Of a stretch of 63,073 nt of DNA, positions 1 through 62,165 are shown piece after piece. Source of the stretch: a virus. The stretch is from positions 1-63,073 of IMG/VR virus record IMGVR_UViG_3300043449_000393. The stretch is one strand, 5' to 3'. Under the pieces are notes generated by a model, which saw only the letters and a list, made by a program, of their open reading frames with translations, did no database searches and was not told the origin of the DNA. Position 1 is the stretch's first letter. Each line of letters opens with the position of its first letter. A program made the position numbers and the translations under genes.

Positions 1-898
1 AGTATGTGTCAGCAACGCTGGCGATGTTGAGGTCGACGGCGCTCGTTACCAAGACTCGGTCCACGGTGTCCATGAACGAGACAATGTCGAACACCCGTTT
101 GTGCAGCGATACCGTGCTTGCGTCGGAGAATCCTTGCGTAGCGTCAAACTTGTTCAGGCTCGGTGTCAGTCGTGGACTATCCGTCTGGGAAAACTCGTCA
201 AAAATAGGAGCCTTGGTGAACTGCACGTACTTGCGTTCCAGCGCGTATGGCGTGTCCGCAAGCTGCTTGTCTACGTCGCGCCGCAGCGTGTCACTGGTGA
301 ACGCCATGTTCATGATGTTTTTCATGAACTGGTACAGCGATCCGTCGGTTGACTCGAACGAGTCGTTCATGGCAACGCCATCGCCGAACGTCTTTTTCAG
401 AACCCGCATGGGTTCGTCCGACAACTCTAAGGTGTCCACGAGCAGCCTAGCGAAATCGATCGCTCGCAGCTCCGAGAGCACAAGTGTCTCCTCGGCGTAC
501 TTTGCAACAGCGCGTGTAAGGGCATCCGTGACAGCTTGGGTGTCTGCCGCAGTTTTTGTCAGTGAAAGCGCTACATAGCTAAACGCAGTCGTTTCATCCG
601 CAAGAGCCTTGTCTACGACTAACGCCGTCGCGTCCACCATCGCCTGAATGTCTGCGATGTACCGGAAGCGCCCGGTCTCGTCTATAAAGGCGTCAAACGC
701 CAGTTCCTCGTAGATAGCCGAAGCAAGCGCGGTAGCCGATGTGGTCGACACCACCAGCGCAATGTGCGCAACGCTGGCGATCGGTACCTGAACGACTACA
801 CCAGCCGTGGGCTCAACTACAGATATGCTTGCGGAAATACGGGTCGTAGTTACGCTTGCCGACGGCGTCGGTTGAATCGGTTCAACCGTAAGGCGCAT
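1..898 (-). CDS. Repetitive tail-associated protein, partial (left edge, copy A)
   Basis: An open minus-strand frame runs from an ATG at 898 to the left edge without a stop; about 299 residues are visible. The product is Ala/Val/Thr/Ser-rich at the N-terminus. It then shows loosely repeated 30-45 residue units ending in patterns such as K-x-L-A-D and D-x-x-x-x-x-D, as expected of an elongated beta-rich or fibrous virion protein. The start overlaps the stop of the gene at 898-1230. It occupies the same place as 59258-60181 but is very divergent from it. I do not recognise a named family. Placement among tail genes supports a tail or fibre-base role, which is inference. Confidence 0.75.
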   Translation of the reverse strand, partial: MRLTVEPIQPTPSASVTTTRISASISVVEPTAGVVVQVPIASVAHIALVVSTTSATALASAIYEELAFDAFIDETGRFRYIADIQAMVDATALVVDKALADETTAFSYVALSLTKTAADTQAVTDALTRAVAKYAEETLVLSELRAIDFARLLVDTLELSDEPMRVLKKTFGDGVAMNDSFESTDGSLYQFMKNIMNMAFTSDTLRRDVDKQLADTPYALERKYVQFTKAPIFDEFSQTDSPRLTPSLNKFDATQGFSDASTVSLHKRVFDIVSFMDTVDRVLVTSAVDLNIASVADTY

Positions 899-1230
899 TA
901 GAAGTCCTCACGGACCTTGAACTTCAGCAGCTCGTAGACGGTCTGAACTTGCGAGTCCGGGAACGTGATCTCGATCTCACCCTCGTAATCGCCGGGCTCA
1001 CCCAACAACATTTCGGGGGACGAGGCTGGATAGAACGCGCATTGGCCCGCCAAACCGTCTGTGACAGAGCCGATAACCGTCGCGGTCAGATCGGTGCTTC
1101 CAGCCAGCCTAAACTTCAGTCGTGGCGTTGCGCCAGTGATGTTTACAGCCGAACCGTCTGTGCTATCTGTAATGGTGCAGCGGATCGCTGGGCGGGTATC
1201 GCCCTGAACCAGTTTAATCTTTTCGGCCAT
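898..1230 (-). CDS. BppU/DUF2479-like baseplate-type Ig domain protein (copy A)
   Basis: 110 residues. The opening LVQGDTRP followed by an ITGATPRLKFR-type segment matches my memory of the N-terminal domain of BppU-family (DUF2479-like) phage proteins, a small beta-sandwich that attaches receptor-binding parts to the tail. The protein ends with a Y-E-L-L-K-F-K strand. It lies between the repetitive tail protein and the adaptor gene, 8 bases from the latter. The second copy at 60181-60513 has the same length and is roughly three-quarters identical. The function is inferred from the fold signature and position. Confidence 0.75.
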   Translation of the reverse strand: MAEKIKLVQGDTRPAIRCTITDSTDGSAVNITGATPRLKFRLAGSTDLTATVIGSVTDGLAGQCAFYPASSPEMLLGEPGDYEGEIEITFPDSQVQTVYELLKFKVREDF

Positions 1231-1238
1231 GGTCTACC

Positions 1239-1898
1239 TCACGCTTTGGGGGTTACGCCAGCAGTGCCGCTGAGTTCAGCGTTCAGTGCGCCAGTGAACG
1301 CGCCGTAGTGCGCCTGCGCACGCTGGGCGTTGCCTGCGAACTCGGTGTCCTTGGTGTAGGCACGGTACAGGATGTAATCGGCCAGCGGGTTGGCATAGAT
1401 GTCAGGAAGGCTGATGTCGCCAGAGATGGCTGTGTACAACGCGCCGTCGGCTGGCTCCGTGATATTCGTTGGGTAAGCAGAGTACACGATCTCAACAGAC
1501 GCGTTTTCCGCCGCTGCAGGGGGATACACGTAGAACACCTTGGGGTCGCGAGGGTCATACATGTAGTGCAGAATCTCGGTCGCACCGGTTTGGTTTTGCC
1601 AGCTGGGTAGCTGCGAGTCCAAGATATTGCGTGTGGTCATACGCACAGCGCGTTGATTGCCGCCCGTGTTGCGTGTGATGTCCAACAGCTTCGATCCATT
1701 GGTGGGTAGCGCCTGCTTCGCACCGGGCACAAGTGCTTTGGTGGCGTTGGTCACCGTAGCGTCGGGGCGCAACATGGCAACTTCACGCTGACCATCGTTG
1801 AGGTAGCGCACCAGCTCGTTGGCAGGCCAACGGATGGAAGTTGTGTCCTGAAGCGTGGTGACAACACGCTGGATGATGGATTGAGCTGTGATTGCCAT
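1239..1898 (-). CDS. Phage adaptor / DUF6682-like tail connector (copy A)
   Basis: 219 residues. An N-terminal helix (QDTTSIRWPANELVRYLNDG) is followed by a beta-rich body and the strand KVFYVYPP. This pattern is typical of podovirus adaptor proteins placed between portal and tail tube (DUF6682-type, functionally like T7 gp11). It probably sits in the virion at the portal-tail junction. Copy B at 60523-61182 is the same length and about 80% identical. The gene is followed at close spacing by the BppU-like gene in the same direction. Confidence 0.75.
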   Translation of the reverse strand: MAITAQSIIQRVVTTLQDTTSIRWPANELVRYLNDGQREVAMLRPDATVTNATKALVPGAKQALPTNGSKLLDITRNTGGNQRAVRMTTRNILDSQLPSWQNQTGATEILHYMYDPRDPKVFYVYPPAAAENASVEIVYSAYPTNITEPADGALYTAISGDISLPDIYANPLADYILYRAYTKDTEFAGNAQRAQAHYGAFTGALNAELSGTAGVTPKA

Positions 1899-1906
1899 GG
1901 TCTACC

Positions 1907-2539
1907 TCAAGCGAAGGGGCGAGTGCGAACGCGCATGGAGCCACGGATCAAGCCGTAGTTGCCCTCGATGCGCGAGCTGATTGTCTGTTTCGCAGCAGAG
2001 TCCAGCAGATATTGCGCCTGTGCGAAGTTTGTGAAAGGCTGGTCTGGAATCTGCATGGCGCGTGCGATTGCGCCAGACACGATGGGGTCGATCCAGATGT
2101 TGTACAAGTCGTCATCCAACTGCGTAGCGTTGCGCGTCGGGCGCAGGTTCACTGCTACGACGACGGTGTATTTACCGTCTGGTGGCGGCGACAACATCAG
2201 AGTGAATGTGTTGTCCGTGCGATCCGAGTAGAAGCCGCGTGGCTGGGCTTGCCCTGTTGGCATGTCGTTGCGGATGGCCTCGAACATGCCGGGGTTGAGC
2301 TCTCTGCCATCAACCGTCACACCCATGATGCGGTTGATTTCGTGGTACTGCGTAGGCGGGTCTAGGTCGTACTGCACCTTGCCCGCTGTGGTCTTGAACG
2401 GGTCAAGGTTCTGACGCAGAGTCAGAGAGCTCTCGGCGAACTCAATCGCCGAGTTAAGCAGAACCTGATCCACCATGGGCTCTGAGCAGCCGGGCAAAAA
2501 CGGCAGGATTCTAGGGTAGAAAGCGCTCAGAGGTTTCAT
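1907..2539 (-). CDS. Tail tube/adaptor protein (copy A)
   Basis: 210 residues beginning MKPLSAFYPRILPFLPGCSE. This Pro/aromatic-rich start is shared by adaptor-type proteins that dock on the portal ring. The central beta-region contains TLMLSPPP and a conserved C-terminal RGSMRVRTRPFA. Copy B at 61191-61823 is the same length and about 92% identical. Likely part of the neck with the 219-residue neighbour. The exact role is inferred from position after the capsid gene. Confidence 0.72.
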   Translation of the reverse strand: MKPLSAFYPRILPFLPGCSEPMVDQVLLNSAIEFAESSLTLRQNLDPFKTTAGKVQYDLDPPTQYHEINRIMGVTVDGRELNPGMFEAIRNDMPTGQAQPRGFYSDRTDNTFTLMLSPPPDGKYTVVVAVNLRPTRNATQLDDDLYNIWIDPIVSGAIARAMQIPDQPFTNFAQAQYLLDSAAKQTISSRIEGNYGLIRGSMRVRTRPFA

Positions 2540-2550
2540 GGTGGGCTACC

Positions 2551-2826
2551 TTATTCAGCAGCAGGGGCTTGCTCTTCTGCGGGGACTTCCGCAGGTGTGT
2601 CGGCGGATTCTACCGCAGGTGCCGCCTTTTTGCGAGTTTTCGGTGCAGCTGCTTCTGCGGCTGCCATGTTGGAGTGCAGGTTGGCCAACTCTTGACCTTG
2701 CTCCGTCAGAGCCCAGTCAGTGCCTTCCATGCGGGCGATAACGGTGATCTCACCGTTTACCATTGCGCGGATTTTGTGGCCGAGGATTTCGCCGCCGAGG
2801 CGAGCCATGAGATCAAGTGCGTTCAT
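2551..2826 (-). CDS. Small conserved protein downstream of capsid (copy A)
   Basis: 91 residues: an N-terminal MNALDLMARLGGE helix, a beta-hairpin-like centre around ARMEG, and a disordered Lys/Ala/Pro/Glu-rich tail. It lies directly after the capsid gene and its terminator. Copy B (61835-62110) has the same length but only about 70% identity, with most changes in the tail. I do not recognise a named family. A head decoration or head-tail accessory role is possible. Confidence 0.65.
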   Translation of the reverse strand: MNALDLMARLGGEILGHKIRAMVNGEITVIARMEGTDWALTEQGQELANLHSNMAAAEAAAPKTRKKAAPAVESADTPAEVPAEEQAPAAE

Positions 2827-2839
2827 TTATGTGCTCCAG

Positions 2840-2870
2840 AAATAAAAAGGGGCCCCGGAGGGCCCCTTTA
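2840..2870 (-). terminator. Terminator after capsid gene (copy A)
   Basis: A perfect 10-base-pair stem (2846-2855 with 2860-2869) and a 4-base CGGA loop. On the minus strand it is followed by TTTTTATTT. It lies just beyond the capsid stop, so it can reduce read-through from the highly expressed capsid gene into the tail adaptor genes. An equivalent hairpin follows capsid copy B. Confidence 0.88.
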
Positions 2871-2882
2871 CTGTATCACCGA

Positions 2883-3890
2883 TCAGGAGGCAGAGCCAAC
2901 TTGAGCGACGACCAAGGCTTGAGGTTTCACAACCTTGCGGCCATACACAGCCAGACCACGGACGATGTCGCCGAAGTCAGTCTGGTTACGCAGAGGCTCA
3001 GTCTTGTTGATGGTCATGGCGAAAGACGTAGCAGCCTTTGTACCAGCGATCATCGTACGACGTGCCTTAGCACCAGACACAGCGCCGCCTGTGGAAGTAG
3101 CGGACAAGCCAGCCACCAGAGCCTTACCGGCTTCGCCTTTTGGCAGCAGGTTCGACACGTACACAGAGAAGCGATCCAACATACCGATCTTGCCGGTACG
3201 GATGGTGCTGGACTGGTCGCCAGTGAAGTACGCCTGAGCGATGCTAGATTGCATCAACAGGTGACGATCGTAGGGCGACAAGATCAAGAAGCGACCTTCT
3301 TCAGGCACGTTCTGCTCGTCCAGCACGGTGGACATGCGCAAGATGGCCTTGAGCACGTTCTCGGGAGTGGCTTGGTCGATAGGGGTGGTGTCTGTACCCA
3401 AGTTGTAGGCAGCAGAGATAGCACCGGCAGTAGCGCCTTCGTTGGCAGCGGCAGGGCCTTCGGTCACGAAGCTGTTGAAGAACACTTCGTTTTCGATGGC
3501 GATCTTCAGTTGCTTGGCAGCGTCTTCGGTGAACATGTTCATCAAAGCGATGTCAGACTGATAAGCCAGCACGTCGTTGACTTGCACGCCGAAATACTTG
3601 CCCTTGTTCACTTGCATATCTTGGAAGATAGGAGTGGGGACTTCGTAGGACAGGCTTTGGCCAACGGTGTAGTCGCTGATGCTGATCGAAGGAGCCAAGC
3701 GGATGCGAACGGTGTCGCCTTGGTTCTTCAACTCGCCTTCGTAGTCAGTGTTAGTGACTTCGGACAGCATGGTGTTCTGGTAGAACTTGGCCAGCAGCTT
3801 GCCAGACCACAGGGTCGGGATAAAAGCGCCAGAGTACGAAGGGTTGGTGTCAAATGCACCAGAGCCCGTGACAGGATAAACAGCAGCCAT
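2883..3890 (-). CDS. Major capsid protein, HK97-fold (copy A)
   Basis: 335 residues. The start is a clear ATG with a strong AGGAGG ribosome site 5-10 bases upstream. The protein has an N-terminal segment with GAFIPTLWSGKLLAKFYQ, a spine region, and a C-terminal region with NKTEPLRNQTDFGDIVRG, as in T7-like/P22-like podovirus coat proteins of this length. It forms the icosahedral shell. It lies downstream of scaffold and portal as expected, and its own terminator follows. Copy B at 62166-63073 is about 95% identical over the shared 295 residues. Confidence 0.92.
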   Translation of the reverse strand: MAAVYPVTGSGAFDTNPSYSGAFIPTLWSGKLLAKFYQNTMLSEVTNTDYEGELKNQGDTVRIRLAPSISISDYTVGQSLSYEVPTPIFQDMQVNKGKYFGVQVNDVLAYQSDIALMNMFTEDAAKQLKIAIENEVFFNSFVTEGPAAANEGATAGAISAAYNLGTDTTPIDQATPENVLKAILRMSTVLDEQNVPEEGRFLILSPYDRHLLMQSSIAQAYFTGDQSSTIRTGKIGMLDRFSVYVSNLLPKGEAGKALVAGLSATSTGGAVSGAKARRTMIAGTKAATSFAMTINKTEPLRNQTDFGDIVRGLAVYGRKVVKPQALVVAQVGSAS

Positions 3891-13881: not shown

Positions 13882-14880
13882 ATGCGTTACAGCAACATCA
13901 AAACATCCGTGCTCTCTCAGTTCCAAGTCGACGGTGGCAATGCCGTCGTGCCATTCATCCTCGGTGCTCCCGGCGGTGGCAAGTCAGCCTGTGCTCGTGA
14001 CATTGTGCAATCCCTTGGCATCGAGAATGTCGTCGAGTTCACTGCGTCACTGCGTGACCCTGTCGACGTGCTTGGCGTGCCTGACAACACTGGCGAGTAC
14101 ACACGCTGGGTTCCACCCCAAGAGTTCTACAACCTGCGCCAAGGTGTCGGTCGATCAGCACTCATTCTGGAGGAACTGTCGGATGCGCCTGTGCCAATGC
14201 AGAACGCGCTGTGCGGTGTTATCTACGATCGTCGTGCTGGCAACCTCAAGCTGTCTGACGAGCTGTTCATCATCGCCACTGGCAACCGCACCGAGGACAA
14301 GTCAGGTGCCAACCGCATCACATCCAAGCTGGCCAACCGCACACGACGCTTTGACTTCCAAGAGAACATCGACGACTGGACCGAGTGGGCGCTCGGTCGT
14401 GACATTGACCCTGTGTTGATTCAGTTCCTGCGCTTCCGTCCCGGCCTGCTGTCCGACTTCAGCGCTGACCGCTTCGCTAACCCTACGCCTCGTGCGTGGG
14501 AGCGTGTCAACCTCATCCCATCGACGCTCGACTCTGGCCTGTTCTTCGACAACTGCGCTGGTGAGGTAGGCGAGGGTGCAGCTGCTGAGTACACAGGCTT
14601 CAAGCGTATCTACGAGAGCCTTCCTTCGATGGAGGAAATTTTGATGGACCCAAACAAAGCCGAGGTGCCACAAGACCCTGCGACTCTGTATGCTACAATG
14701 GGGGCTCTTGCACGCAAGACCACCAAAGACAACGCTGATCGTGCGTTCGCATACCTCGAACGTGTGTCTCCTGAGTTCCGTGTTATGTGTGTCAAGGACG
14801 TTATCAAGCTGGAGCCCAAAGTGAAACACTCGCGTGCTTTTGTAAACTGGGCTTCTAAAAATGCAGAAGTTTTAATGTAA
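13882..14880 (+). CDS. MoxR/CobS-type AAA+ ATPase
   Basis: 332 residues from the ATG at 13882 after TAGGAATC. Walker A is GAPGGGKS (28-35). Walker B is LILEE (94-98), with Glu replacing the usual Asp. Sensor 1 is ATGN (132-135), and an NRTRRF motif (152-157) supplies likely arginine fingers. This is the MoxR-type AAA+ clade, which forms hexamers that remodel partners bearing VWA domains. A VWA/metallopeptidase protein is encoded 2.8 kb downstream. The last 15 or so codons are more A/T-rich than the rest, next to an HNH gene. Confidence 0.88.
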   Translation: MRYSNIKTSVLSQFQVDGGNAVVPFILGAPGGGKSACARDIVQSLGIENVVEFTASLRDPVDVLGVPDNTGEYTRWVPPQEFYNLRQGVGRSALILEELSDAPVPMQNALCGVIYDRRAGNLKLSDELFIIATGNRTEDKSGANRITSKLANRTRRFDFQENIDDWTEWALGRDIDPVLIQFLRFRPGLLSDFSADRFANPTPRAWERVNLIPSTLDSGLFFDNCAGEVGEGAAAEYTGFKRIYESLPSMEEILMDPNKAEVPQDPATLYATMGALARKTTKDNADRAFAYLERVSPEFRVMCVKDVIKLEPKVKHSRAFVNWASKNAEVLM

Positions 14881-14890
14881 AGGTACTACT

Positions 14891-15484
14891 ATGAAACCGC
14901 ACGACCTGACAGGCCAGACGTTCAACCGGCTTACCGTACTTTCTAGGTACGGCAAAACAAAAAGTGGCGACATTGTTTGGCTATGTCAGTGTTCATGCGG
15001 TAAAGAAACCACAGGGCCTGCATCAAAAATAAAAGTCGGAGCAGTTAAAAGTTGCGGCTGTTTAATCTCTGACACTGTTCGAGAGCGGCTTACCAAACAC
15101 GGCAAGTCCCGCACCAAGGAATACCATATTTGGTTTCACATGAAGACTAGGTGTTACGACAAAAATAACTCAGAGTACAAAAACTATGGCGGTCGTGGCA
15201 TCACTATCTGCGACCGATGGAAAGACAACTTTGAAAACTTTTTGTCTGACATGGGAAAGTCCCCAGCTGGCAAATTTTTAGACAGAAAGGACAACGATGG
15301 AAACTACGAACCTGATAACTGCCGATGGGTTACTCGCATCGAAAATAACAATAACCGGCGCAACTCCGTCAAGTATTTTGGTATGTCCATAACCGAGATC
15401 GCCAATAACTTGGGTGTTACCCACGACGTCATGAAGTCTAGGTTCAAGCGAAACCCAGATTTGTATGTGGATGTTGTCTTATGA
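14891..15484 (+). CDS. HNH homing-type endonuclease (AP2/HNH family) 1
   Basis: 197 residues. N-terminal GQTFNRLTVLSRYG with Cys pairs (CQCSCG, SCGC) forms a zinc-like domain. The HNH-type core includes YGGRGITICDRW, a FLSDMG segment, LDRKDNDGNYEPDNCRW and a C-terminal helix-turn-helix. This is the free-standing phage homing endonuclease layout. It lies between the AAA+ gene and the rest of its module and is more A/T-rich than its neighbours. A related gene lies at 29087-29710. Confidence 0.88.
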   Translation: MKPHDLTGQTFNRLTVLSRYGKTKSGDIVWLCQCSCGKETTGPASKIKVGAVKSCGCLISDTVRERLTKHGKSRTKEYHIWFHMKTRCYDKNNSEYKNYGGRGITICDRWKDNFENFLSDMGKSPAGKFLDRKDNDGNYEPDNCRWVTRIENNNNRRNSVKYFGMSITEIANNLGVTHDVMKSRFKRNPDLYVDVVL

Positions 15485-15786
15485 GCGTGTCCTTCACCAA
15501 CTACAGGTGGGAGCCATCGAATGTCCGCAAGGGTGATCGGTACTACTACAAGCGCGACAGAGTGTATGTATTCCCCGGAACGCAGTCACGCAAACCTGAA
15601 GAGCAAGTAATAGCTACCGTCACCTACGACGACAACTCCAAGTCACCTCATTGGGGCAGGTGGCACGTCACCATCGGCGCTCAGTCACCTGAGCTCAACG
15701 CACTGCGCCTGTCGGACATACCCAAGTTCAGCAGCAAGGATGACGCCATCGCTTGGACAACAGCAATGGTGAGGCTAAGCATATGA
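15481..15786 (+). CDS. Small early protein, paralogue family
   Basis: 101 residues, beta-rich with many aromatic residues (YRWEPSNVRKGDRYYYKRD) and a terminal helix FSSKDDAIAWTTAMVRLSI like other small genes of the block. The ATGA overlap with the HNH gene shows the HNH gene is part of the translated chain. Unknown function. Confidence 0.65.
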   Translation: MSVSFTNYRWEPSNVRKGDRYYYKRDRVYVFPGTQSRKPEEQVIATVTYDDNSKSPHWGRWHVTIGAQSPELNALRLSDIPKFSSKDDAIAWTTAMVRLSI

Positions 15787-16073
15787 GATACGTCTGGGAA
15801 GAAGATCTGCTGCCCGACATAAACTTTAAGTGGGCGGTAGAGCACCACCTCAAGAAGGTCTGGGACAAAGACCCCTTGGAGAAGCAGTTCGCCATCCCAC
15901 TGCGCGGCGTATGGAAAGTCACCGTGGCATGGGTCACCAAGATCGGCGATCGCAAGTGGCTCTGCCAATTCGTCAACAAACACGACGAGGGCCGGACGTT
16001 CCGCTCTCTGAAAGCAGCCAAGGCATACGCCGTGGCAATCATCACACTGGAGAATACAAATGACCATCTCTAA
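15783..16073 (+). CDS. Small early protein, paralogue family
   Basis: 96 residues from the ATG at 15783 (MRYVWEEDLLPDINFKWAVE). It ends in LKAAKAYAVAIITLENTN, again the family ending. Overlaps both neighbours. The Trp-rich beta region is followed by the helix. Unknown function. Confidence 0.62.
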   Translation: MRYVWEEDLLPDINFKWAVEHHLKKVWDKDPLEKQFAIPLRGVWKVTVAWVTKIGDRKWLCQFVNKHDEGRTFRSLKAAKAYAVAIITLENTNDHL

Positions 16074-16932
16074 ACTCTCAGACAAGGCAGTTCTCGTGAA
16101 GCTGACGATTCGTCGTGCAGCACTCACTCGCCGTGACCACGGGCTTACAGCAACCTTACAAGCTCAGGAGAACGACAAGTCGCTCACTGTGTTGACCAAG
16201 TTGTTCCGCAATCGCGAGTCGCCCATCAATCAGATCATGGCCAAGTATGGCGAGGTCTATGCGTATCACAAGAAGAACACTCTGCCTTACGTCGACGCTG
16301 GCCCACGCATCCTGCCAAACGATATGTACTTCGAGTACACACAGGAGATGAAGCATCGCATCGCTTCGGTGGACAACTTGCTTGACACCTACATGCCCAT
16401 GTATGACCAGCTTGTGCTTGACGACGTGATGTATCGCAACAGTGGCAGTGCAGCTGGCCGAGCCAACACAGACGAGTACCCCAGTTCCGAGGACTTCAAG
16501 CTGTCCATGTCAGCCGAGCTTCGGTTCCAGCCCATGCCCGATGCGTCGCACTTCCTGTTCGACCTGAGCGATGAGGACGTTGAGTCGTTCAAGCGTGCAG
16601 AGCAAGAAGCTGCTGCCCAAGCCAACGCCGATGCGATCAACCGGATGCTCAAGCCCATGGGTGCGCTGGTCACACGGCTCAAGGAATACCAAGGCGGACA
16701 GAAGGAACGCTTCCACAACAGCTTGATCGACAACGTGATCGAGGGCTGTGACATGGCCAAGAAGTTGGCAATCAACCCGACACCGGAGTTGCTCGCTGAG
16801 ATCGAAGGCATCAAGACCCTTGCTGGTTCCATCTTGGATACGGTAGAGATTGTCAAGGGTTCAGCCAATGCACGAGCCAAGGCCAAGGCAGACCTCGATG
16901 CTGTGGCAAGCAAGCTGGCTGGGTTCTACTGA
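16060..16932 (+). CDS. Partner protein of the AAA+/VWA module
   Basis: 290 residues, mostly helical. The N-terminal strand and basic helix (KAVLVKLTIRRAALTRRD) and the middle KKNTLPYVDAGPRILPNDMY recall uncharacterised phage and plasmid proteins found beside CobS/MoxR-like ATPases and VWA proteins (a DUF3150-like group; from memory, tentative). It lies between the ATPase (13882) and the VWA gene (17671). A coiled-coil region follows at about residues 170-215. A substrate or adaptor role in the ATPase complex is inferred. Confidence 0.7.
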   Translation: MTISKLSDKAVLVKLTIRRAALTRRDHGLTATLQAQENDKSLTVLTKLFRNRESPINQIMAKYGEVYAYHKKNTLPYVDAGPRILPNDMYFEYTQEMKHRIASVDNLLDTYMPMYDQLVLDDVMYRNSGSAAGRANTDEYPSSEDFKLSMSAELRFQPMPDASHFLFDLSDEDVESFKRAEQEAAAQANADAINRMLKPMGALVTRLKEYQGGQKERFHNSLIDNVIEGCDMAKKLAINPTPELLAEIEGIKTLAGSILDTVEIVKGSANARAKAKADLDAVASKLAGFY

Positions 16933-17126
16933 TGTTCACCGACCTCGAGTACATCCTGATGGTCGCAGTAGCTGTGCTGCTGTGGCGTAACCAGTCCATG
17001 AAAACGTGGGCTATGTATGAAAAGTACAGGGCTAACAAGTACGCCAACTGGCTGGTTGGTGTGTACGAAAAGAAAGGAAAGATTGTGCAGAAAGACGACG
17101 GATACTTTTTTGAGGAGATCAAATGA
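16932..17126 (+). CDS. Small membrane-anchored protein
   Basis: 64 residues with one N-terminal membrane helix (LEYILMVAVAVLLW) and a charged cytoplasmic tail ending in EEIK. It starts on the stop of the previous gene (TGATG) and overlaps the next one, inside the AAA+/VWA operon. Such an anchor could tether the module to the membrane, which is speculation. Confidence 0.6.
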   Translation: MFTDLEYILMVAVAVLLWRNQSMKTWAMYEKYRANKYANWLVGVYEKKGKIVQKDDGYFFEEIK

Positions 17127-17668
17127 GCAACATGAACAACAACGAACGGGGGCGTATCACTGGTATGCCCGGCACCGAGACAACGGTAACGCTGTACCCA
17201 CAGCGGCTAGGTGTGAGGATGCGTAACAACATCATCCGCATGATCGAGAACCGTTTCATCACAGGTGGCTGGAGCTCGGGGTCAGCCAAACTAGCAAGGG
17301 CGTTAGCCGTCAAGTACCAGCTGCAGGTTAGCAACAACCGCTGGAACGGCATGCGAATCATGGGCATTACCTCGAGCGCTGCTCCACTGGTATCTGAGAT
17401 TGTGCAAGCCGACTTCACCGCATGGATACTGGAGAATCCAGATTACGCCGCCAACAATTACTACAAGAACGACATGGTATCAAGCATGCGAAACGCCAAT
17501 TCGCTCAACCCGGATTTCTATGTCAGCTTACGCGAGAAAGAGTCTATCCGTAAGGTTTTAGAAATCTTGACAGAGCACACTACACAGGAGACTAAAGACA
17601 AAGCAATGCAAGTAGCCAACCTGCTCAGAGGCACTGAGCCAATCCACCTCATCACTTTTCAGGAGTAA
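17123..17668 (+). CDS. Unknown protein in the AAA+/VWA operon
   Basis: 181 residues, alpha-rich. The N-terminal Met/Asn-rich stretch is followed by VTLYPQRLGVRMRNNIIRMI and several amphipathic helices. Three bases separate its stop from the VWA/metallopeptidase start. I do not recognise the family; co-transcription links it to the module. Confidence 0.65.
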   Translation: MSNMNNNERGRITGMPGTETTVTLYPQRLGVRMRNNIIRMIENRFITGGWSSGSAKLARALAVKYQLQVSNNRWNGMRIMGITSSAAPLVSEIVQADFTAWILENPDYAANNYYKNDMVSSMRNANSLNPDFYVSLREKESIRKVLEILTEHTTQETKDKAMQVANLLRGTEPIHLITFQE

Positions 17669-17670
17669 TC

Positions 17671-18786
17671 ATGGCAGTCACCAAACTCGATCGCGCTAAG
17701 GTAGCTATCGTTACCCAGCATCCGTTCTTCGCCTCTATCCTCATGAAGCGCAAACTCATCGAGGACAACACCATCCCCACTGCGGCTGTCGACCAGCGCG
17801 GTCAGATTTACTACAACAAAGACTTCGTCGAGAAGCTGTCTGTTGACGAGCTTGTGTTCCTGCTGTGTCACGAGGTCGGCCACGTTATCGGTCAGCATGC
17901 CCTGCGTCGCGGTGCTCGTCAGCCCAAGAAGTGGAACATCGCCGGTGACGCATGGATTAACGACATGCTCAAAGACGCTGGCATCGGCGCTGTCATCCCC
18001 GGCTGTGTCAATATGCCCGGCTCCAAAGACGAGACAGTCGACGTCATCTACAACAAGCTGCCTGACGATCCCGACGGCAACGGCCCCGGCGGTACAGGCG
18101 ACGACATCATCGAGCGCGGTGGCCCTGTGTCCGACGAAGAAGCTACACGCATCGACGCCGAGACCCGTGTCGAGATTGCCCAAGCTGCGCAAGCAGCCAA
18201 GGCTCAGGGCAAGATGCCCGGTTCACTGGCCAAGATCGTCGCTGACCTGATCGAGCCTGACACCCCATGGCACGAGATTCTCGAGCGTTACATGACATCG
18301 TTCACTCGCGGTGACTACACATGGTCGCGCCCTAACCGTCGCTTCGCCAACTGCTACCTGCCCTCTGTCGGCAAGACTGCGGAGATGGGTGAGGTCGTCA
18401 TCCAAGTCGACGTGTCCGGCTCTATCAGCAAGCTCGAGCTTGACCATTACAACGGTCACATGCAACGTATCGTGTCGCTGTGCAATCCGTCCCGTGTTCA
18501 TATCTTGTATGTCGACACTGGTGTAGCCAAGCACGACGTGTTCGAGCAAGGCGAAGAAGTAGCACTCACTTTCTACTGCGGCGGCGGCACTGACATGGAA
18601 GCTGGCTTCGACTACATCGCCAAGGAAGGTATCAACCCCGAGGTGTTCGTCTGCTTGACCGACGGCTACACCGACTTCAACCCATCCAAAGCCCCTGAGT
18701 ATCCTGTCGTCTGGTGTATCTCCAGTGACATTCAAGCTCCATACGGCGACAATATCCACTTTAACTTGGAGAACCACAATGGCTGA
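17671..18786 (+). CDS. Metallopeptidase-like / VWA protein (DUF2201 type)
   Basis: 371 residues. The N-terminal half has a zinc-protease motif HEVGH (67-71) within LCHEVGHVIGQHALRR. The C-terminal half is a von Willebrand A-like domain with all MIDAS elements: DVSGS (about 247-251), a Thr in GGTDM (about 304-308), and TDG (about 330). This is the DUF2201 architecture that partners MoxR-type ATPases in bacteria. Here the ATPase is encoded upstream in the same operon. Whether the peptidase is active is unknown. Confidence 0.87.
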   Translation: MAVTKLDRAKVAIVTQHPFFASILMKRKLIEDNTIPTAAVDQRGQIYYNKDFVEKLSVDELVFLLCHEVGHVIGQHALRRGARQPKKWNIAGDAWINDMLKDAGIGAVIPGCVNMPGSKDETVDVIYNKLPDDPDGNGPGGTGDDIIERGGPVSDEEATRIDAETRVEIAQAAQAAKAQGKMPGSLAKIVADLIEPDTPWHEILERYMTSFTRGDYTWSRPNRRFANCYLPSVGKTAEMGEVVIQVDVSGSISKLELDHYNGHMQRIVSLCNPSRVHILYVDTGVAKHDVFEQGEEVALTFYCGGGTDMEAGFDYIAKEGINPEVFVCLTDGYTDFNPSKAPEYPVVWCISSDIQAPYGDNIHFNLENHNG

Positions 18787-19974: not shown

Positions 19975-20060
19975 CATGGCCATTCCCCACACAACCCTTA
20001 CCCAACAAACCCGGCGAGCCTAAGTTCAACCCAGACAACTATGAGGATGCACCGCTATGA
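19971..20060 (+). CDS. 29-residue Pro-rich peptide
   Basis: A tiny frame starting at ATG 19971 (MTWPFPTQPLPNKPGEPK) that exactly bridges the stop of the previous gene and the start of the next (ATGA at both ends). The overlap pattern supports translation, at least as a coupler. Unknown function. Confidence 0.45.
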   Translation: MTWPFPTQPLPNKPGEPKFNPDNYEDAPL

Positions 20061-20704
20061 CACCCATCGAAAGATTTGAGGCGCTGACCAAGCGCCAGCA
20101 AGACGAGATACTGGACAAGCATCGCAACTTCAACACGGAACATCTTTACTGGTGGGACAATGTTTACAGCGACTTCAAGCGTGACATGGACGTCATCGGT
20201 ATCGAGGTTGAGCGCATGTACTTCAGCGGCTTTAGTTCACAGGGTGACGGTGCATGCTTCGATGGTCGTGTGTATTCGTGGGGAGACTTCTTGCCATCCA
20301 TCCTACGCGCAGACCCAGCACTCATAACGCTGGCTGAGCAGGCTTGGGGCTTCCGAGTCGAACACCGAGGCCACTACTACCACGAGAACTGTACGTCGTT
20401 CACATCTGACATGGCATGTCCAAGCGACTATTGCTATTCCGAGTTGGACGAGTTCGTCCATGCTTACAGCCCATACAAGACAGAGATACAGGACGCAGTG
20501 TTCCTAGCAAACTTGCGAGAATACGATTACGACAAGCTGCATGATGAGTTCGAGGAAGCCTTCAAGGACCACATGCGTGACCTATACAGCCGACTCGAAG
20601 TCGAGTACGACGCCATGACCTCTGACGAATCCGTTTTGGAAGCGCTGCATGCCAACGACATGCTTGATGAAATCATTGACGAACTGGAGAATGAATATGC
20701 CTGA
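20057..20704 (+). CDS. Conserved phage protein with FSGFSSQGDGA motif
   Basis: 215 residues. Contains MYFSGFSSQGDGACF, a motif I know from many phage early proteins of unknown function. It is followed by a W/H-rich middle (WGFRVEHRGHYYHEN) and a long acidic helical C-terminus (MLDEIIDELENEYA). Its start overlaps the small Pro-rich peptide. The motif is established as conserved; the function is not. Confidence 0.7.
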   Translation: MTPIERFEALTKRQQDEILDKHRNFNTEHLYWWDNVYSDFKRDMDVIGIEVERMYFSGFSSQGDGACFDGRVYSWGDFLPSILRADPALITLAEQAWGFRVEHRGHYYHENCTSFTSDMACPSDYCYSELDEFVHAYSPYKTEIQDAVFLANLREYDYDKLHDEFEEAFKDHMRDLYSRLEVEYDAMTSDESVLEALHANDMLDEIIDELENEYA

Positions 20705-28790: not shown

Positions 28791-29127
28791 TACACCAGAA
28801 GGCAAGGTCAAAGACGCTTGCAAGAAAATGTTGAACCGGCATGAGGTGTACTTCTTTATGCCTGTGTCCAACGGCATGGGCTCCATGGGCATATTCGACA
28901 TTGTCGCTTGCGCAGATGGCGTGTTTGTCGGCATTGAATGCAAAAGCGACAGCAGCAAAAAGCCTACCGCGTTGCAGACACACAACGCTACAAAAGCTAA
29001 GAATGCTGGGGCCGTTATTTTTTTAGTGCATGTTGACAACATAACGGATTTGGAGAATACTATAATCCAGATTAAAGGAGGCGAACGTGGAACTGACAGG
29101 CTTTCGTTTTGGCCGTTTAGTGGCTGA
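28783..29127 (+). CDS. VRR-NUC nuclease
   Basis: 114 residues from the ATG at 28783 after GGGAGGAAG. MGSMGIFDIVACADGVFVGI and ECKSDSSKKPTALQ supply the D-x(n)-E-x-K core and Gln of the VRR-NUC Holliday-junction/flap nuclease family; AKNAGAVIFLVH follows. The last 13 codons overlap the HNH start, and the DNA upstream of that start holds the HNH promoter, so the C-terminus may be altered by the insertion. Confidence 0.85.
   Translation: MASTPEGKVKDACKKMLNRHEVYFFMPVSNGMGSMGIFDIVACADGVFVGIECKSDSSKKPTALQTHNATKAKNAGAVIFLVHVDNITDLENTIIQIKGGERGTDRLSFWPFSG
29033..29061 (+). promoter_or_regulatory. Promoter of the second HNH gene, inside VRR-NUC
   Basis: A perfect -35 TTGACA (29033-29038) and -10 AATACT (29056-29061) lie 17 bases apart; TATAAT overlaps just downstream. 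The HNH GTG start follows 26 bases later with an AAAGGAGG ribosome site. No other early gene here has such a promoter. Confidence 0.6.
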
Positions 29128-29710
29128 GTCAAGAACAACCAAAGGCAAACGAGTTGCATGGATTTGCCTGTGTGACTGCGGTGTGCGCACGGTTAAAGCG
29201 CAAGTTGACTTGCGAAGTGGCGACACAACGTCCTGCGGGTGCCGCAAAAATGAAGTTACGGCTGCAAGAAATACTACCCACGGCATGGCCCACACTGCGG
29301 CATACGCAAAATGGCTTGGCATGAAGGCCCGGGTGCGTAACGCAAGCCGAAAAGAAAACCGATGCTATGCAGGCGTCACGATATGCCAGCGATGGCTTTC
29401 GTTTAAAAACTTTTTGTCGGATATGGGTCAGCCACCTGACGGGTATTCCCTAGACCGCAAAGACAACAACAAAGGCTACAGCAAAAGTAACTGCCGTTGG
29501 GTTCCACTTGTAGAGCAATCCAGAAACACGCGAAGGCTAAGAATGCACGAAGGATTTTGCATTTCGCAGTCGGCACGAAAAAATGGGCTGTCGCCTGACG
29601 TTGTTTTAGACAGGATCAACAAGCTGGGGTGGACAATAGAGGACGCCCTAAGTACCCCCAAGCGTAAACAGAGGAAATCAAATGACCAAATCAACACCTC
29701 GCAAACTTGA
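29087..29710 (+). CDS. HNH homing-type endonuclease (AP2/HNH family) 2
   Basis: 207 residues with a GTG start at 29087 and the strong site AAAGGAGG. Same layout as 14891-15484: GFRFGRLVAESRT, CLCDCG and SCGCRK Cys pairs, YAGVTICQRW, FLSDMG, LDRKDNNKGYSKSNCRW, and a terminal helix-turn-helix. It overlaps the end of VRR-NUC by 41 bases and overlaps the following gene. Homing mobility is inferred from family and placement. Confidence 0.88.
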   Translation: MELTGFRFGRLVAESRTTKGKRVAWICLCDCGVRTVKAQVDLRSGDTTSCGCRKNEVTAARNTTHGMAHTAAYAKWLGMKARVRNASRKENRCYAGVTICQRWLSFKNFLSDMGQPPDGYSLDRKDNNKGYSKSNCRWVPLVEQSRNTRRLRMHEGFCISQSARKNGLSPDVVLDRINKLGWTIEDALSTPKRKQRKSNDQINTSQT

Positions 29711-37173: not shown

Positions 37174-37428
37174 TCAGCACTTCCACGCACGCAACGACTT
37201 GTTGATGCGGCTGTTGGGGTCGTTGGCAGTTTTGGCGCTGGTCAACTTCTCCTTCATGCCTTCCATTCTGGCACAAAAAGAGTCCTTGCGGGGACCACCT
37301 TCGGGTTGAGGAGCCTTGAGTCCCGGCTTGCCGGGGTTAGCTTTATTGTAGGAGGCACGCCCTTTGGCGTTGAGCCCACCCTTGGGGTCTTTGCCTTCTT
37401 TGCGTGTCCATGCAGGTGTCTTAGCCAT
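37174..37428 (-). CDS. DUF6321 family protein
   Basis: 84 residues. TPAWTRKEGKDPKGGLNAKG, the GKPGLKAPQPEGG stretch, SFCARMEGM and SRINKSLRAWKC at the end make a signature I associate with DUF6321, frequent in environmental phages. Its role is unknown; repeated linkage to the giant virion protein suggests a virion or DNA-ejection link (inference). Confidence 0.8.
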   Translation of the reverse strand: MAKTPAWTRKEGKDPKGGLNAKGRASYNKANPGKPGLKAPQPEGGPRKDSFCARMEGMKEKLTSAKTANDPNSRINKSLRAWKC

Positions 37429-40400
37429 TAGATTTGCTCCTCAACGAATCGTTTGTTTGCCTTGTTGAACTGTACACCATCAACGACTTGCCGCTCACGC
37501 TTGGCTTGAGACTGTGGAGCCTTAAGCAATTCAGACAGTGGTTGGCGAGTGTAGCCGTTCTTGACTCTGGCTTCCTGCAGCTTTGCCCACGCATCGCGAG
37601 CTTCAGCCGTAGACTCACCAGCGCGGATGGCCTTGATGTAGTCAGCCTTGACCTTGGTAGACCGGTCTTGGTAGAACTGGTTCATCTCCAGCGTGTTCTG
37701 CTGGCGTTCCATTATCACGGACTGCTGGACTGGCTGAATACCCATGGCCTGCACAACAGCTTCCCAAGCACTGACCTCCGACGCTGGCAGTACTATGTCA
37801 CCGTTACGGCGTGTCATTCCTTGCGTGGAAATGCGGTAAGCCTTGGCGGCGTCACCCAGACCCTTGGGGAGAACTTGCTCCATGCCCTTGTACCATTCAC
37901 CGCTGAGCATCTGGCCGAGGCCGTCAGCCACACGAGCGGCCATACCAACTGGAGCGCCGCCCAGCAAAGTACCAGCAGCCTCAATCACGCCGGACTTGGT
38001 AGTCAGGTCAGCTTGGCTGAACGGCATGATGGACAGCATGTTGCCTGCGCCCACTTTGCCAGAGATGTCCACACCAGCCAGCGTCGGAGCACCGCGCATG
38101 ATCAAGTTGGCCATGTCCTCGTCGCCGATAAACTTGCGCAACTCAGCTGTGACATCCAATGGATCGTCGTCATCACCGAACAGAGCTCCGATAGCCCAAG
38201 CAATCGCGGAGTAGCCGGGCAAGCCCATGGCACCAGCCAGCAATGCAGTGTGGCCAAGTGAGTAGGCCAGAGCCTTGGTAGCTGCGAGTTTTTCTTTGCT
38301 GTCAAAGCCAGCGTCCTTGAGCAGCTTGGCGTAGTACGTCAGCTGAATCAACTGGAACTTGCGGAACTGCAACGCCACCTTGCCGACTGGATTGTTGAAG
38401 AATCGTGGGGCGTTGAACGCCGAGTAGTCACCATGGGTCTCAGTCAGGATGCGGTCAGCGTAGTTGATGGCGGCTTCTTTGTCACCAGTCTTGGCCAACT
38501 CCAAACGGTATGCAGCCATGGCTGTGGACAAGCGGTTGATAGATTCAACCTTCTGCACGGCAACACGCAAGAACTTATCGACCTTGTTCCAGCCTTTGCT
38601 GAACGCGCTATCGCCGTCGATCTTGAACTCGCCCAGTTCGGTCTCCAAGCCAATGTCGATCTTGCCTCGATTGGCCAGCTCTTGGATGGCGTCGCGCACG
38701 TCGGCAGGAACCTTGCTAAAGTCAAACTGCTGGTCGTACCGAGCAGACTTCATAACGTTGCCCAGCTGGCTGTACGCTGTGAACAACGCAGTGGAGGTCT
38801 TGGTGTAATCGTGGCGACCGGCCATGGCTGGAACCGACATCATCCAAGGCTGTGTCAAGTTCTGCATGTAGTACGCAGGGCTTGTGGCCAAGAAGTAGAT
38901 CGAGCTTAGGCGCGTGACCTTGCTGATAGCTGGAATAGGCTTGACGTCCAACGATGAGTCGTATCGGCGCGTGATCTCATTCAGAATTTCTGACTTGCGG
39001 TTCAAGTCACCGCTGCCAGCGTTTTCCTCTTTGCGCATGGCCTGAATCACGTCTTGCACCTGTGGGTTGTACTCCACGGACGCCACGAAATTGGCATCAG
39101 CGCGACCCTGAGAGGCAAACGAGCGCAGCATGTCGATCTCACCAGACACACCACGGCGACGCATCTCTGACTTACGAGCGCTACCTTCGGCCAAAGCCTG
39201 CAGGTACATGTCACTGACCATGCGTTGAATCTGAGCTGCGCCTTTGTCGCCAGCGTTGGCCTTGGCGTCTGCCATAGCACGCAGTCGGGTAATTGCGCCA
39301 AGTGAGTCACGGCTACCGAACAACTCTTTGTCAGCAACAGAACGCTCTTTGAACGCAACCGTGCCGCCGTTAAAATGGCCTTGGGCGGTCAACTGGTCTG
39401 CCAAATTGCGAGCTTCATTCTTGGTCTCAGTGAAACTCACGTGGTAGTGGTCTGGGTCTTTCTCCAGACGAGACAGCAGTTTAGTGTCGTTGGCAGCCTT
39501 GGCAGCAATGTACTCTTTGGACTTGGCCACAACAACATGGTCGCCGAAGCGCTTGATTGGAGCGTACGGGATGCCCTCACGAATCTTGAACAGTCGAGCA
39601 AATCGCTTCAGGTCGTTGGCCTTCTCTTTGACCAACTTGGCTTTCTTCAGTGGATCAGTCTCGGCGGCAATGCGAGCGTCGTACTCGGATGTGGCGTAGT
39701 CCACCACAGCCTTCTTCTTGGCCGACAACATCTTGTCACCGTGGGCAAAGATAGCCTTGGCATACGCTTGAGCCTTCGGGCCCAGTGCGTTGAACATCGC
39801 AGCCATCTTAGGGTCAGCCTTAAAGGTGCCCTTGTCGTAGCCCCACTTGCCGGTGCGGGTGGACTCAAAGAGGAACTGGTTGACGCTGTTGGGGCCGTCG
39901 CCTTTGTTGGCTTCTTCGATGGTTGCGTACATGTCAGCAACGCGCTCGACTTCGCGCTCCAAGGAACGAGCCTTGGTATCACGCTTGGCCAACAGGCTTT
40001 CAAACGTAGCGGCAGACTTGATGCCGACATCCACAGCTCGCTTGATGAGATCGCTGGTAAACACCACGCGGTCCAAACCCTGACGAACCCAGTCGCCGAT
40101 GGTGTTGATGCTGTCACTCACAGGCTTTTGGGCCTGCTCAGGCAGCTTGGAGACGGCCTTGTTTACTTGGGCTTGTCGGCTGGCTCGAGAAACTGCGCCA
40201 ACAGGCTGCGTGCCTTGCTGTCCAGCTTGAACTTGTCCTGACTGAGCACCTTGCTGGGCACCTTGGGCGCGTTGGTAGTTTGTGGCTTTGACTTGTTCAT
40301 GTGCTTTCTCCATAAAAGCGTGTGTTGCTGGCAGGTTATCACGGAGGAAATCCATGCCGCCGTTCATGTTTGAGAAAGCCCACACCTGTGCAAAGACTTC

Positions 40401-46347: not shown

Positions 46348-46764
46348 TTACTCCTTGCGCAGCCACCGACAAGTGTCAGGCCGCATAACCAAAACGTGCA
46401 TGTCGGCACCCGGTGCGCCGTCCTTCATCACAAACTCTTCCTCAAACCCGAGGTGTTTGTCGAATGCCAGTATTTTAGGCTCATTTGACGGAACCATGCC
46501 AGTCAATCTTTTCAGGCCACAGTGGCGGAACGCGTAGTCGCACACCGCTTGGAACAGCGGGACGATCTGTTTGGTCTGCCGAGCGATGGCAATGTGACAT
46601 GTGGCGTTGGCCCCATTGTAGTTGTTGATGACCACTCCGGCCAAGACATCGTCACCACTCATAACGCCAATGGCGTAGAAGCTGCCCCAGTCCGCGTTCT
46701 GGTCGACCTGCTCGGCGACCCATGCACCGATACGTTCTTTCTGGTCGTAGACAAGATGAGGCAT
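46348..46764 (-). CDS. GNAT-type acetyltransferase
   Basis: 138 residues. The pattern of strands with VLAGVVINNYNGANATCHIA, a helix FQAVCDYAFRHCGLKRLTGM and NEPKILAFDKHLGFEEEFVM matches the GNAT fold, including the acetyl-CoA-binding turn region and the K-x-L-G-F end. Such genes sit among tail genes in several phages and are thought to acetylate phage or host proteins. The substrate is unknown. Confidence 0.8.
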   Translation of the reverse strand: MPHLVYDQKERIGAWVAEQVDQNADWGSFYAIGVMSGDDVLAGVVINNYNGANATCHIAIARQTKQIVPLFQAVCDYAFRHCGLKRLTGMVPSNEPKILAFDKHLGFEEEFVMKDGAPGADMHVLVMRPDTCRWLRKE

Positions 46765-59257: not shown

Positions 59258-60181
59258 CTATGCAAACGTGCGGTACTCACCGACGTAATCAGCTTCAAAA
59301 TATGTCAGGTCACAGTATCCTTGCGAGATCACCAAACCTGACTCCGAAAACCCAAATGAATCTACGACCGCTTTGGTGGTGGACCATACTGCTGAATCCG
59401 CTGTACCTGCTGTGTCAGAGAAAAGTTTGGTGGACGCTACAGCCGCAACGTCTGCAGCCGTTAGTGTATCCGCAAGTGCCTTACTAAAGCTAGTAAATGT
59501 GGCAGAACTTGCGCCAAACGCATCCGCAAGGGCTTTTACAGCTCTTAGAGCTACTTTGTCCGCCACTCCCAGTGTGTCAGTAAGCGTCTTGGCAATGTCA
59601 AAAAACCGGGCATCTCCTATAGAGGCTACGTTGCTGATGTACTTTTGAAATGCGTACGTAGACCCATCTCCAATATCCGCCCCATCATTCAAAGCAAACG
59701 CGTCGGCTAGCACTTTGCTGACAGCCCGGGACACGGCGTCTGAAGTCACTACCGTGTGCTGCAGGTTTTTAAAGGCATGCTTTGTCGTAGTTGTGCCCAC
59801 GGCCACTGTGTCGTTCACAGTTCGCAGCGTCGTCTTGACGATGTTGATGACGTCCACCACAGACACCGAGTGGGTCAGACGCTTTGTTACCGCTGCGCGG
59901 GTGACGTCAGTTACCGCCACGACGTCAGTCTTCAGGCTACTCAACGCGAACGTTTTGTTGTCCGCCACAGATACAACGTCCCGAACCTTTTTATACCAGC
60001 CCAGTTCGTCAAGAGCTGCAGAAGCCGCTATAGCCATATAGGACAGCGTAAAACCAGCTACCGAGGCCGAGGCACTAGCCTGAGCTACTACGGACACAGA
60101 AATGGCGGAAACACCAGACGCGGCCTCCACCAAAAAAGTAGAAGCGCCAACCAGACTTACGCTGATGTTAGCGCTCGTCAT
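59258..60181 (-). CDS. Repetitive tail-associated protein (copy B)
   Basis: 307 residues. The first third is Ala/Ser/Val-rich. Then come repeated units of about 35-45 residues with K-x-L-(A/T)-D (for example VSKVLADAFALNDGADIGDG, AKTLTDTLGVADK, ALADAFGASSATF). The end YFEADYVGEYRTFA may be a docking strand. It takes the same place as the gene cut at the left edge but is much changed, so it is fast-evolving. A fibrous or linker role in the tail is inferred. Confidence 0.75.
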   Translation of the reverse strand: MTSANISVSLVGASTFLVEAASGVSAISVSVVAQASASASVAGFTLSYMAIAASAALDELGWYKKVRDVVSVADNKTFALSSLKTDVVAVTDVTRAAVTKRLTHSVSVVDVINIVKTTLRTVNDTVAVGTTTTKHAFKNLQHTVVTSDAVSRAVSKVLADAFALNDGADIGDGSTYAFQKYISNVASIGDARFFDIAKTLTDTLGVADKVALRAVKALADAFGASSATFTSFSKALADTLTAADVAAVASTKLFSDTAGTADSAVWSTTKAVVDSFGFSESGLVISQGYCDLTYFEADYVGEYRTFA

Positions 60182-60513: not shown

Positions 60514-60522
60514 GATATTTCC

Positions 60523-61182: not shown

Positions 61183-61190
61183 GATTTACC

Positions 61191-61823: not shown

Positions 61824-61834
61824 GGTGGGCTACC

Positions 61835-62110: not shown

Positions 62111-62130
62111 GTGTGTTCTCCAAAAATGAA

Positions 62131-62152: not shown

Positions 62153-62165
62153 ACTGTATCACCGA

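What the first reader, a model, noticed from the sequence alone, without database searches (positions are those of the whole stretch)
13882..18786. AAA+ MoxR-type ATPase, partner protein and metallopeptidase/VWA protein in one phage operon
The ATPase (Walker A, LILEE, ATGN, arginine fingers), a 290-residue partner and a DUF2201-type protein with both HEVGH and a complete MIDAS lie in one coupled operon, with a small membrane anchor between. In bacteria MoxR-VWA pairs act as chaperone-like machines (RavA-ViaA, CobS-CobT, NorQ-NorD). In a lytic phage early operon the target could be host metal-enzyme assembly, respiration or a defence complex. I know of no described function for such a phage-borne set.
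Basis: partly seen in the sequence, partly recalled or inferred. Interest (0 to 1): 0.8.

Follow-up and report, generated by a model that had tools for sequence, protein, structure and literature searches.

The report
Three-part remodelling machine in phages, plasmids
This virus carries three neighbouring genes that appear to encode one ATP-driven protein-remodelling machine; two of the three are widespread but unexplained phage genes, and the full set of three also sits on large conjugative plasmids, which suggests a job that phages and plasmids share.

Summary
The window (a 63 kb IMG/VR virus record) encodes an AAA+ ATPase (13882-14880), a 290-aa partner (16060-16932) and a zincin/VWA protein (17671-18786) in one tightly packed + strand run. 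The ATPase and VWA proteins are the gp24/gp25 pair of N4-like phages: core genes, middle transcripts, function unknown, with homologues in about 700 phage records each. So the pair is not new.

Two things are new here. First, the partner is a remote DUF3150 protein that forms a conserved third component: ATPase-partner-VWA occurs in 55 of 81 distinct loci. Second, the same trio is contiguous on Burkholderiaceae and Rhodovastum plasmids, usually between PRTRC and conjugation genes, and in a few alpha- and betaproteobacterial genomes. N4-type phages lack the partner.

MIDAS residues are invariant. The zinc site is lost in two plasmid copies, so remodelling looks more central than proteolysis.

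Best reading: a MoxR/VWA-like three-subunit remodeller whose target is common to phages and plasmids (DNA metabolism, host takeover or counter-defence). The target is unknown. New variant of a known kind.

The parts
13882..14880 (+). AAA+ ATPase (332 aa), N4 gp24-type, the motor
   Evidence: phrog_1297 2.3e-65; 675 phage records; RBS AGGAA upstream
13963..13986 (+). Walker A GAPGGGKS
   Evidence: alignment A9, motif table
14161..14175 (+). Walker B LILEE (Glu in place of the usual Mg-binding Asp throughout the window clade; DE in N4-type, DD in Burkholderiaceae plasmids)
14891..15484 (+).
   Evidence: phrog_374 7.5e-71; present at this place in only a few relatives
15481..15786 (+). small ORF, 101 aa, variable
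15753..16073 (+). small ORF, 106 aa, variable
16060..16932 (+). third subunit: remote DUF3150-family protein (290 aa), helical with a small beta element
   Evidence: tblastn to MinM2 DUF3150 1e-12; hhalign to plasmid/chromosomal DUF3150-type proteins prob 100, E 1.9e-42; AF2 model pLDDT 85.8, pTM 0.78; BFVD match to a DUF3150 protein TM 0.71
16932..17126 (+). 64-aa protein with a short hydrophobic segment ('membrane anchor'); not conserved as part of the set
   Evidence: absent between the trio genes in L070, L072, L082-L085, L094
17123..17668 (+). 181-aa protein, variable, faster evolving (dN/dS 0.29-0.41)
17671..18786 (+). DUF2201 protein (371 aa), N4 gp25-type: zincin-like domain + VWA domain, adaptor/effector
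   Evidence: PF13203 1.5e-51, PF09967 7.8e-19; phrog_1314 2e-93; 708 phage records
17869..17883 (+). HEVGH zinc-peptidase motif (residues 67-71)
   Evidence: kept in 31 of 33 representative homologues
17947..17949 (+). Asp93 of WNxAxDxxIN, candidate third zinc ligand (inferred)
   Evidence: near-invariant; lost together with HExxH in L126
18319..18345 (+). conserved linker TWSRPNRRF between zincin and VWA domains
18409..18423 (+). MIDAS motif 1 DVSGS
   Evidence: DxSxS in all 33 representatives
18589..18591 (+). MIDAS Thr307
18661..18663 (+). MIDAS Asp331

Best explanation
The three conserved genes encode one ATP-driven protein-remodelling machine. The AAA+ ATPase forms a ring (inferred from the family). 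The DUF2201 protein docks on the ring through its VWA half. Its MIDAS metal site grips an acidic patch on a target or on a partner, while ATP-driven movements of the ring pull on or twist the linker between the VWA and zincin halves, as shown for NorQ-NorD. The DUF3150-type partner is a dedicated third subunit, most likely the adaptor that presents or positions the target. The zincin domain may cut the target in most members, but it is not essential to the module. Because the same set serves phages and large plasmids, and lies with DNA-metabolism genes rather than virion genes, its target is probably a host or element protein complex met by both kinds of element after DNA entry (replication, partition, host takeover or counter-defence). 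Shown here: homology, conservation, co-occurrence and context. Inferred: ring, complex, mechanism and target class.
For: Co-occurrence: 55 of 81 distinct loci hold all three genes. 11 are N4-type, jumbo or other phages, chosen for the ATPase; all have the VWA protein and none the partner. 13 are cut by a contig end, and only two (L086, L102) are true exceptions. Order: the minimal ATPase-partner-VWA form, without inserts, occurs in L070, L072, L082-L085 and L094. Gene order changes to partner-ATPase-VWA in Pseudovibrio and Bartonella, but the set stays together. Plasmids: the trio is contiguous in 10 of 12 plasmid loci read, usually between PRTRC and T4SS genes. Rarity of the partner: 3 strong hits in 399 Burkholderiales genomes (one of them the search centre), 1 of 399 in a Pseudomonadota sample (again the centre); each strong hit has the other genes where the contig allows. 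Conservation: MIDAS residues kept in all 33 representatives, Walker A near-universal; dN/dS 0.10-0.21. Mechanistic model: NorQD (PMC13036017; PMC9976466). The VWA model matches the NorD chain 9qhe_G weakly, E 0.05, prob 0.97. Midasin, another AAA ring that works with a MIDAS domain, is the best solved sequence relative of the ATPase.
Against: No interaction was tested, and no complex could be modelled with these tools. N4-type phages do without the partner, so it is not needed by every gp24/gp25 pair, and L086 keeps ATPase and VWA without it in a 51 kb contig. Walker B departs from DE (EE here, DD in plasmids), so ATP hydrolysis is not certain. The VWA model is moderate (pLDDT 76.8, pTM 0.54) with an unresolved linker, and the NorD 'finger' could not be identified. 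The target class rests only on gene context.
Confidence: 0.6

Rival explanations
1. ATP-dependent metalloprotease: the ATPase unfolds a protein, selected by the partner and the MIDAS site, and feeds it to the DUF2201 zincin, which destroys a host or defence protein.
For: HExxH kept in 31 of 33 representatives, and WNxAxDxxIN, with a candidate third ligand, nearly as well. Peptidase_M48 Pfam match above its cut-off, 3.3e-5. Weak selecase (MJ1213) matches in sequence and fold.
Against: Two plasmid homologues with intact MIDAS have lost the zinc motif (L103 SATVLH; L126 ALKVMQ, with the Asp also gone), so catalysis is not needed by every copy. No peptidase activity is known for DUF2201 in the papers searched.
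Confidence: 0.3
2. Virion-assembly chaperone, like Acidianus two-tailed virus p618/p892, helping tail or head maturation.
For: ATV p618 (MoxR) binds p892 (VWA) and is placed in tail development (PMC4124505). Some N4-like phages have virion-protein genes near gp24/25 (PMC4193335).
Against: The same trio sits on plasmids without virions. In the window it lies in the + strand DNA-metabolism block, away from the - strand structural block.
Confidence: 0.12
3. Counter-defence module: the machine dismantles a host defence complex that attacks incoming phage or plasmid DNA.
For: Shared by phages and conjugative plasmids. The phage also encodes a DarB-like antirestriction region. N4 gp24/25 are middle genes.
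Against: Conserved over very distant hosts and core in N4-like phages, which fits a housekeeping target better than a fast-changing defence. No match to any defence model in PADLOC beyond generic AAA similarity.
Confidence: 0.25
4. Metal-cofactor insertion into a metal enzyme, as for CobS-CobT and NorQ-NorD.
For: This is the known job of several MoxR-VWA pairs (PMC13036017).
Against: No metal enzyme gene is consistently linked to the trio in phages, plasmids or chromosomes.
Confidence: 0.07

Closest known systems
N4-like phage gp24/gp25 pair (Schitoviridae core genes)
   Same: Homologous AAA+ ATPase and DUF2201 VWA/zincin protein, adjacent or close, same strand, early-to-middle region; VWA 25-32% and ATPase 23-31% identical
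   Different: No DUF3150-type partner anywhere in the 11 ATPase+VWA phage records tested (Schitoviridae, Vequintavirinae, jumbo and other phages); Walker B is DE, not EE
DUF3150 (PF11348) proteins with ATPase and VWA-like genes on Burkholderiaceae plasmids
   Same: The same three families in the same order, contiguous; partner homologous over its full length
   Different: Plasmid ATPases have Walker B DD; the zinc motif is lost in two copies; adjacent to PRTRC/T4SS genes. Not described as a system in the papers searched
Synechococcus phage MinM2 / Planktothrix phage Pag-Yong1 / Pra-JY27
   Same: ATPase - DUF3150 - VWA in the same order, 65 kb phages
   Different: 27% identity in the partner; three small paralogous ORFs between partner and VWA
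NorQ-NorD (denitrification)
   Same: AAA+ ring plus VWA protein with essential MIDAS and a remodelled linker; weak structural match of the VWA domain
   Different: NorD N-terminal domain is not a zincin (own knowledge), there is no DUF3150 subunit, and the target is nitric oxide reductase
ATV p618/p892
   Same: Virus-encoded MoxR-VWA pair
   Different: Archaeal virus, linked to extracellular tail growth; no DUF2201 zincin or DUF3150 reported
MoxR-vWA ternary conflict systems (VMAP, iSTAND)
   Same: MoxR + vWA + a third protein
   Different: Third protein and effector domains differ; those are chromosomal conflict systems of multicellular bacteria (PMC7159879)

Membership tests
N4 gp24/gp25 pair | ATPase homologous to gp24 family (phrog_1297) | tested here: met
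   2.3e-65, full length
N4 gp24/gp25 pair | DUF2201 protein homologous to gp25 family (phrog_1314) | tested here: met
   2e-93, full length
N4 gp24/gp25 pair | Located in an N4-like phage | tested here: not met
   TerL is closest to non-Schitoviridae phages such as Hodr, Rollin, BcepC6B
DUF2201 metallopeptidase/VWA | PF13203 and PF09967 above cut-off | tested here: met
   176 and 68.5 bits against 23.2 and 26.4
DUF2201 metallopeptidase/VWA | Peptidase activity | not testable with these tools
   motif only
DUF3150 (PF11348) | Direct match above the Pfam cut-off | tested here: not met
   no PF11348 hit for the window protein at E<=1
DUF3150 (PF11348) | Homology to proteins that match PF11348 | tested here: met
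   hhalign E 1.9e-42 to a profile that includes L102 (PF11348 1e-8) and L100 (1.1e-4)
MoxR AAA+ family proper | Match to a curated MoxR/AAA model | tested here: not met
   only sub-threshold PF00004/PF07728; no NCBIfam hit
MoxR AAA+ family proper | Walker A, Walker B, sensor 1, arginine finger, VWA partner gene | tested here: met
   Walker B Asp is Glu
RavA-ViaA | ATPase sequence relation to solved RavA, with its C-terminal domains | tested here: not met
   no RavA among solved relatives at E<=1e-3; the protein ends after the AAA+ module
NorQ-NorD | Three-dimensional match to the NorQD complex | tested here: inconclusive
   VWA domain matches 9qhe_G at E 0.05, prob 0.97
VMAP / iSTAND ternary systems | Third protein is VMAP or inactive STAND; effector domains fused to vWA | tested here: not met
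   the partner is DUF3150-type and the VWA protein carries only the DUF2201_N zincin
Known anti-phage defence systems | PADLOC model match | tested here: not met
   none for window proteins; only weak IetA/AAA similarity for the Rhodovastum and Burkholderia plasmid ATPases

The most novel reading that the evidence does not exclude
An undescribed three-subunit AAA+/VWA-zincin/DUF3150 machine, exchanged between phages and conjugative plasmids, that dismantles or cuts a host complex limiting incoming DNA (a shared host-takeover or counter-defence engine), of which the N4 gp24/gp25 pair is a two-subunit form.
Probability: 0.25. Interest if true: 0.8.

Novelty: new variant of a known kind. Interest (0 to 1): 0.5.

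Why it matters
gp24 and gp25 have been listed as core genes of N4-like phages for over a decade without a function. Showing that homologues form a conserved three-gene set on plasmids too argues against virion-assembly explanations for that form, names the missing third subunit, and gives a plasmid system in ordinary soil bacteria in which the function can be tested genetically.

Tried and rejected
- Chance or ORF artefact: rejected (family matches far above cut-off; dN/dS 0.10-0.21).
- Phage-specific set: rejected (plasmids, Acetobacteraceae, Pseudovibrio, Bartonella).
- Membrane anchor as a component: rejected.
- Hidden partner in N4-type phages: a profile search of 11 whole records found none.
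- Partner as a known fold: no PDB match at E<=1e-3 and no solved sequence relative.
- Defence-system membership: none.
- Promoter and terminator scan: at or below chance, uninformative.
- Direct Pfam, PHROGs and NCBIfam annotation of the partner gave only chance-level hits.
- Literature on DUF3150: no paper held. Schitoviridae with MoxR: none.
- Failed calls: the first genome-contig query alignment was too diverse; several alignment references ran over stop codons.
Full report
WHAT IS THERE. The window is an IMG/VR virus record of 63,073 bp. The ATPase matches phrog_1297 over its length (2.3e-65); the last gene matches phrog_1314 (2e-93), PF13203 (1.5e-51) and PF09967 (7.8e-19). Pairwise dN/dS with relatives is 0.15-0.18 (ATPase), 0.13-0.21 (partner) and 0.10-0.14 (VWA), against 0.29-0.41 for the 181-aa neighbour.

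THE PAIR IS KNOWN. tblastn finds the VWA protein in 708 and the ATPase in 675 of 50,697 phage records: mostly N4-like Schitoviridae, also Vequintavirinae, jumbo phages and phage G. Annotators name them N4 gp24-like and gp25-like. In a published core-genome study, N4 genes 24 (unknown) and 25 (vWFA domain) are core genes with middle transcripts (PMC4193335). In all 11 phage loci that I opened around an ATPase or VWA hit and that lack the partner, both ATPase and VWA genes lie within a few kb. Earlier notes of such pairs: Bacillus phage 0305phi8-36 orf66/63 (PMC2147016) and ATV p618/p892, for which binding and ATPase stimulation are reported (PMC4124505).

THE PARTNER IS THE NEW PART. The 290-aa protein gives no library hit above chance by itself. 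Its only relatives in named phages are in Synechococcus phage MinM2 and two phages with an identical copy, labelled DUF3150 in MinM2. From there the family reaches plasmids and chromosomes. Profile-profile comparison of the window clade with those cellular proteins gives probability 100 and E 1.9e-42 over the full length. Two of the plasmid proteins match PF11348 DUF3150 (1e-8 and 1.1e-4). The window protein itself does not, so I call it a remote DUF3150 relative. The AF2 model is good (pLDDT 85.8, pTM 0.78). It matches viral DUF3150-type models (TM 0.69-0.95 for the best) and nothing solved.

CO-OCCURRENCE. After removing duplicates, 81 loci carry at least one of the families; 55 carry all three. 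Of the other 26, 11 are N4-type, jumbo or other named phages, which have ATPase and VWA and no partner anywhere in the record. 13 are contig ends cutting the set. Two are real exceptions: L086 (no partner in 51 kb) and L102 (a DUF3150 protein next to a different AAA gene with DUF1257 and DUF2997). In the window's own clade the order is always ATPase-partner-VWA. In L070, L072, L082-L085 and L094 they are directly adjacent, which shows that the HNH gene, the small ORFs and the 'membrane anchor' are dispensable passengers.

PLASMIDS AND CHROMOSOMES. The same three genes are contiguous on plasmids of Rhodovastum, Cupriavidus, Burkholderia, Variovorax, Paraburkholderia, Caballeronia and Robbsia, and near one another on a Simplicispira plasmid. 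In most of the Burkholderiaceae plasmids they lie next to the PRTRC cassette, type IV secretion/conjugation genes, or between the two. Acetobacteraceae genomes have the same order; Pseudovibrio and Bartonella have partner-ATPase-VWA. The partner is rare: three strong hits in 399 Burkholderiales genomes and one, the search centre itself, in 399 Pseudomonadota. Yet every strong hit has at least one of the other genes beside it. Chance cannot give this.

ACTIVE SITES. MIDAS residues (DxSxS, T, D) are present in all 33 representatives aligned. HExxH is present in 31. Two plasmid proteins have lost it, one together with the conserved Asp of WNxAxDxxIN; the joint loss hints that this Asp is a zinc ligand (inference). 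Walker A is near-universal. Walker B is EE in the window clade, DD in Burkholderiaceae plasmids and DE elsewhere. Solved relatives of the ATPase by sequence are led by midasin (8e-12), which also couples an AAA ring to a MIDAS domain (own knowledge). The VWA model is moderate (pLDDT 76.8) and matches VWA domains, among them NorD of the NorQD complex (E 0.05).

HOW IT PROBABLY WORKS. In NorQD a finger of the VWA domain enters the ring pore and ATP-driven motion twists the NorD linker (PMC13036017). MIDAS mutants still bind NorQ but abolish function, so the MIDAS is thought to grip the target (PMC9976466). The window set has the same logic: ring, MIDAS protein, and a strongly conserved linker (TWSRPNRRF) between zincin and VWA domains. 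I infer that the ring acts on this linker, the MIDAS grips the target, and the DUF3150 protein is the target-specific third subunit. The loss of the zinc site in two copies with intact MIDAS says that remodelling, not cutting, is the constant part. Plasmids have no virions, which argues against a virion-assembly role for the trio. No metal enzyme is consistently linked. What phages and plasmids share is DNA metabolism, establishment in a new host and contact with host defences, so I place the target there. The exact target is not determined.

LIMITS. No interaction, activity or timing was tested. The DNA collections were sampled through tblastn and pattern scans, so counts are lower bounds. 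My statement that the trio is undescribed rests on the open-access library, in which DUF3150 is not mentioned at all.

Noticed in passing
window 17671-18786; RefSeq Schitoviridae gp25 records: The DUF2201 zincin/VWA family (phrog_1314) is labelled 'HNH endonuclease', and RefSeq phage records carry this name, although the proteins match DUF2201 metallopeptidase and VWA models and not an HNH domain. Probably a propagated mislabel.
   Followed up: partly
window 896-3790 and 60179-63073: A 2.9 kb stretch with structural genes (including a major head protein-like gene) occurs at both ends with 80.7% identity: an unusual duplication, or a join of two related genomes in the assembly.
   Followed up: partly
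window 37428-44087 (-): 2219-aa protein whose C-terminal third matches a DarB-like antirestriction family (phrog_10089, 8.6e-55).
   Followed up: no
window 20057-20704; L108:7273-7938; L110:14889-15536: A 215-aa protein with a FSSQGDGACFDG motif has relatives close to the trio in Pseudovibrio and Bartonella as well as in the window; no library hit. A possible fourth gene of the same mobile-element pool.
   Followed up: partly
window 14891-15484 and 29087-29710: Two related HNH endonucleases (39% identity); in phage Pollock an HNH homing endonuclease interrupts the ATPase (gp24) gene itself.
   Followed up: partly
L102:5872-8894: On a Manganitrophus plasmid a DUF3150 protein follows a different AAA ATPase with DUF1257 and DUF2997, suggesting that DUF3150 may serve as cofactor for more than one AAA type.
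   Followed up: no
L103:8935-10221, L126:10941-12218: Plasmid DUF2201 proteins with intact MIDAS but destroyed HExxH motif: natural zinc-site mutants.
   Followed up: partly
window 13882-14880 and relatives: Walker B differs by clade: EE (window clade), DD (Burkholderiaceae plasmids), DE (N4-type, MinM2, Rhodovastum).
   Followed up: partly
window 46348-46764 (-): GNAT-like acyltransferase gene inside the structural block (phrog_4470, 5.3e-26).
   Followed up: no
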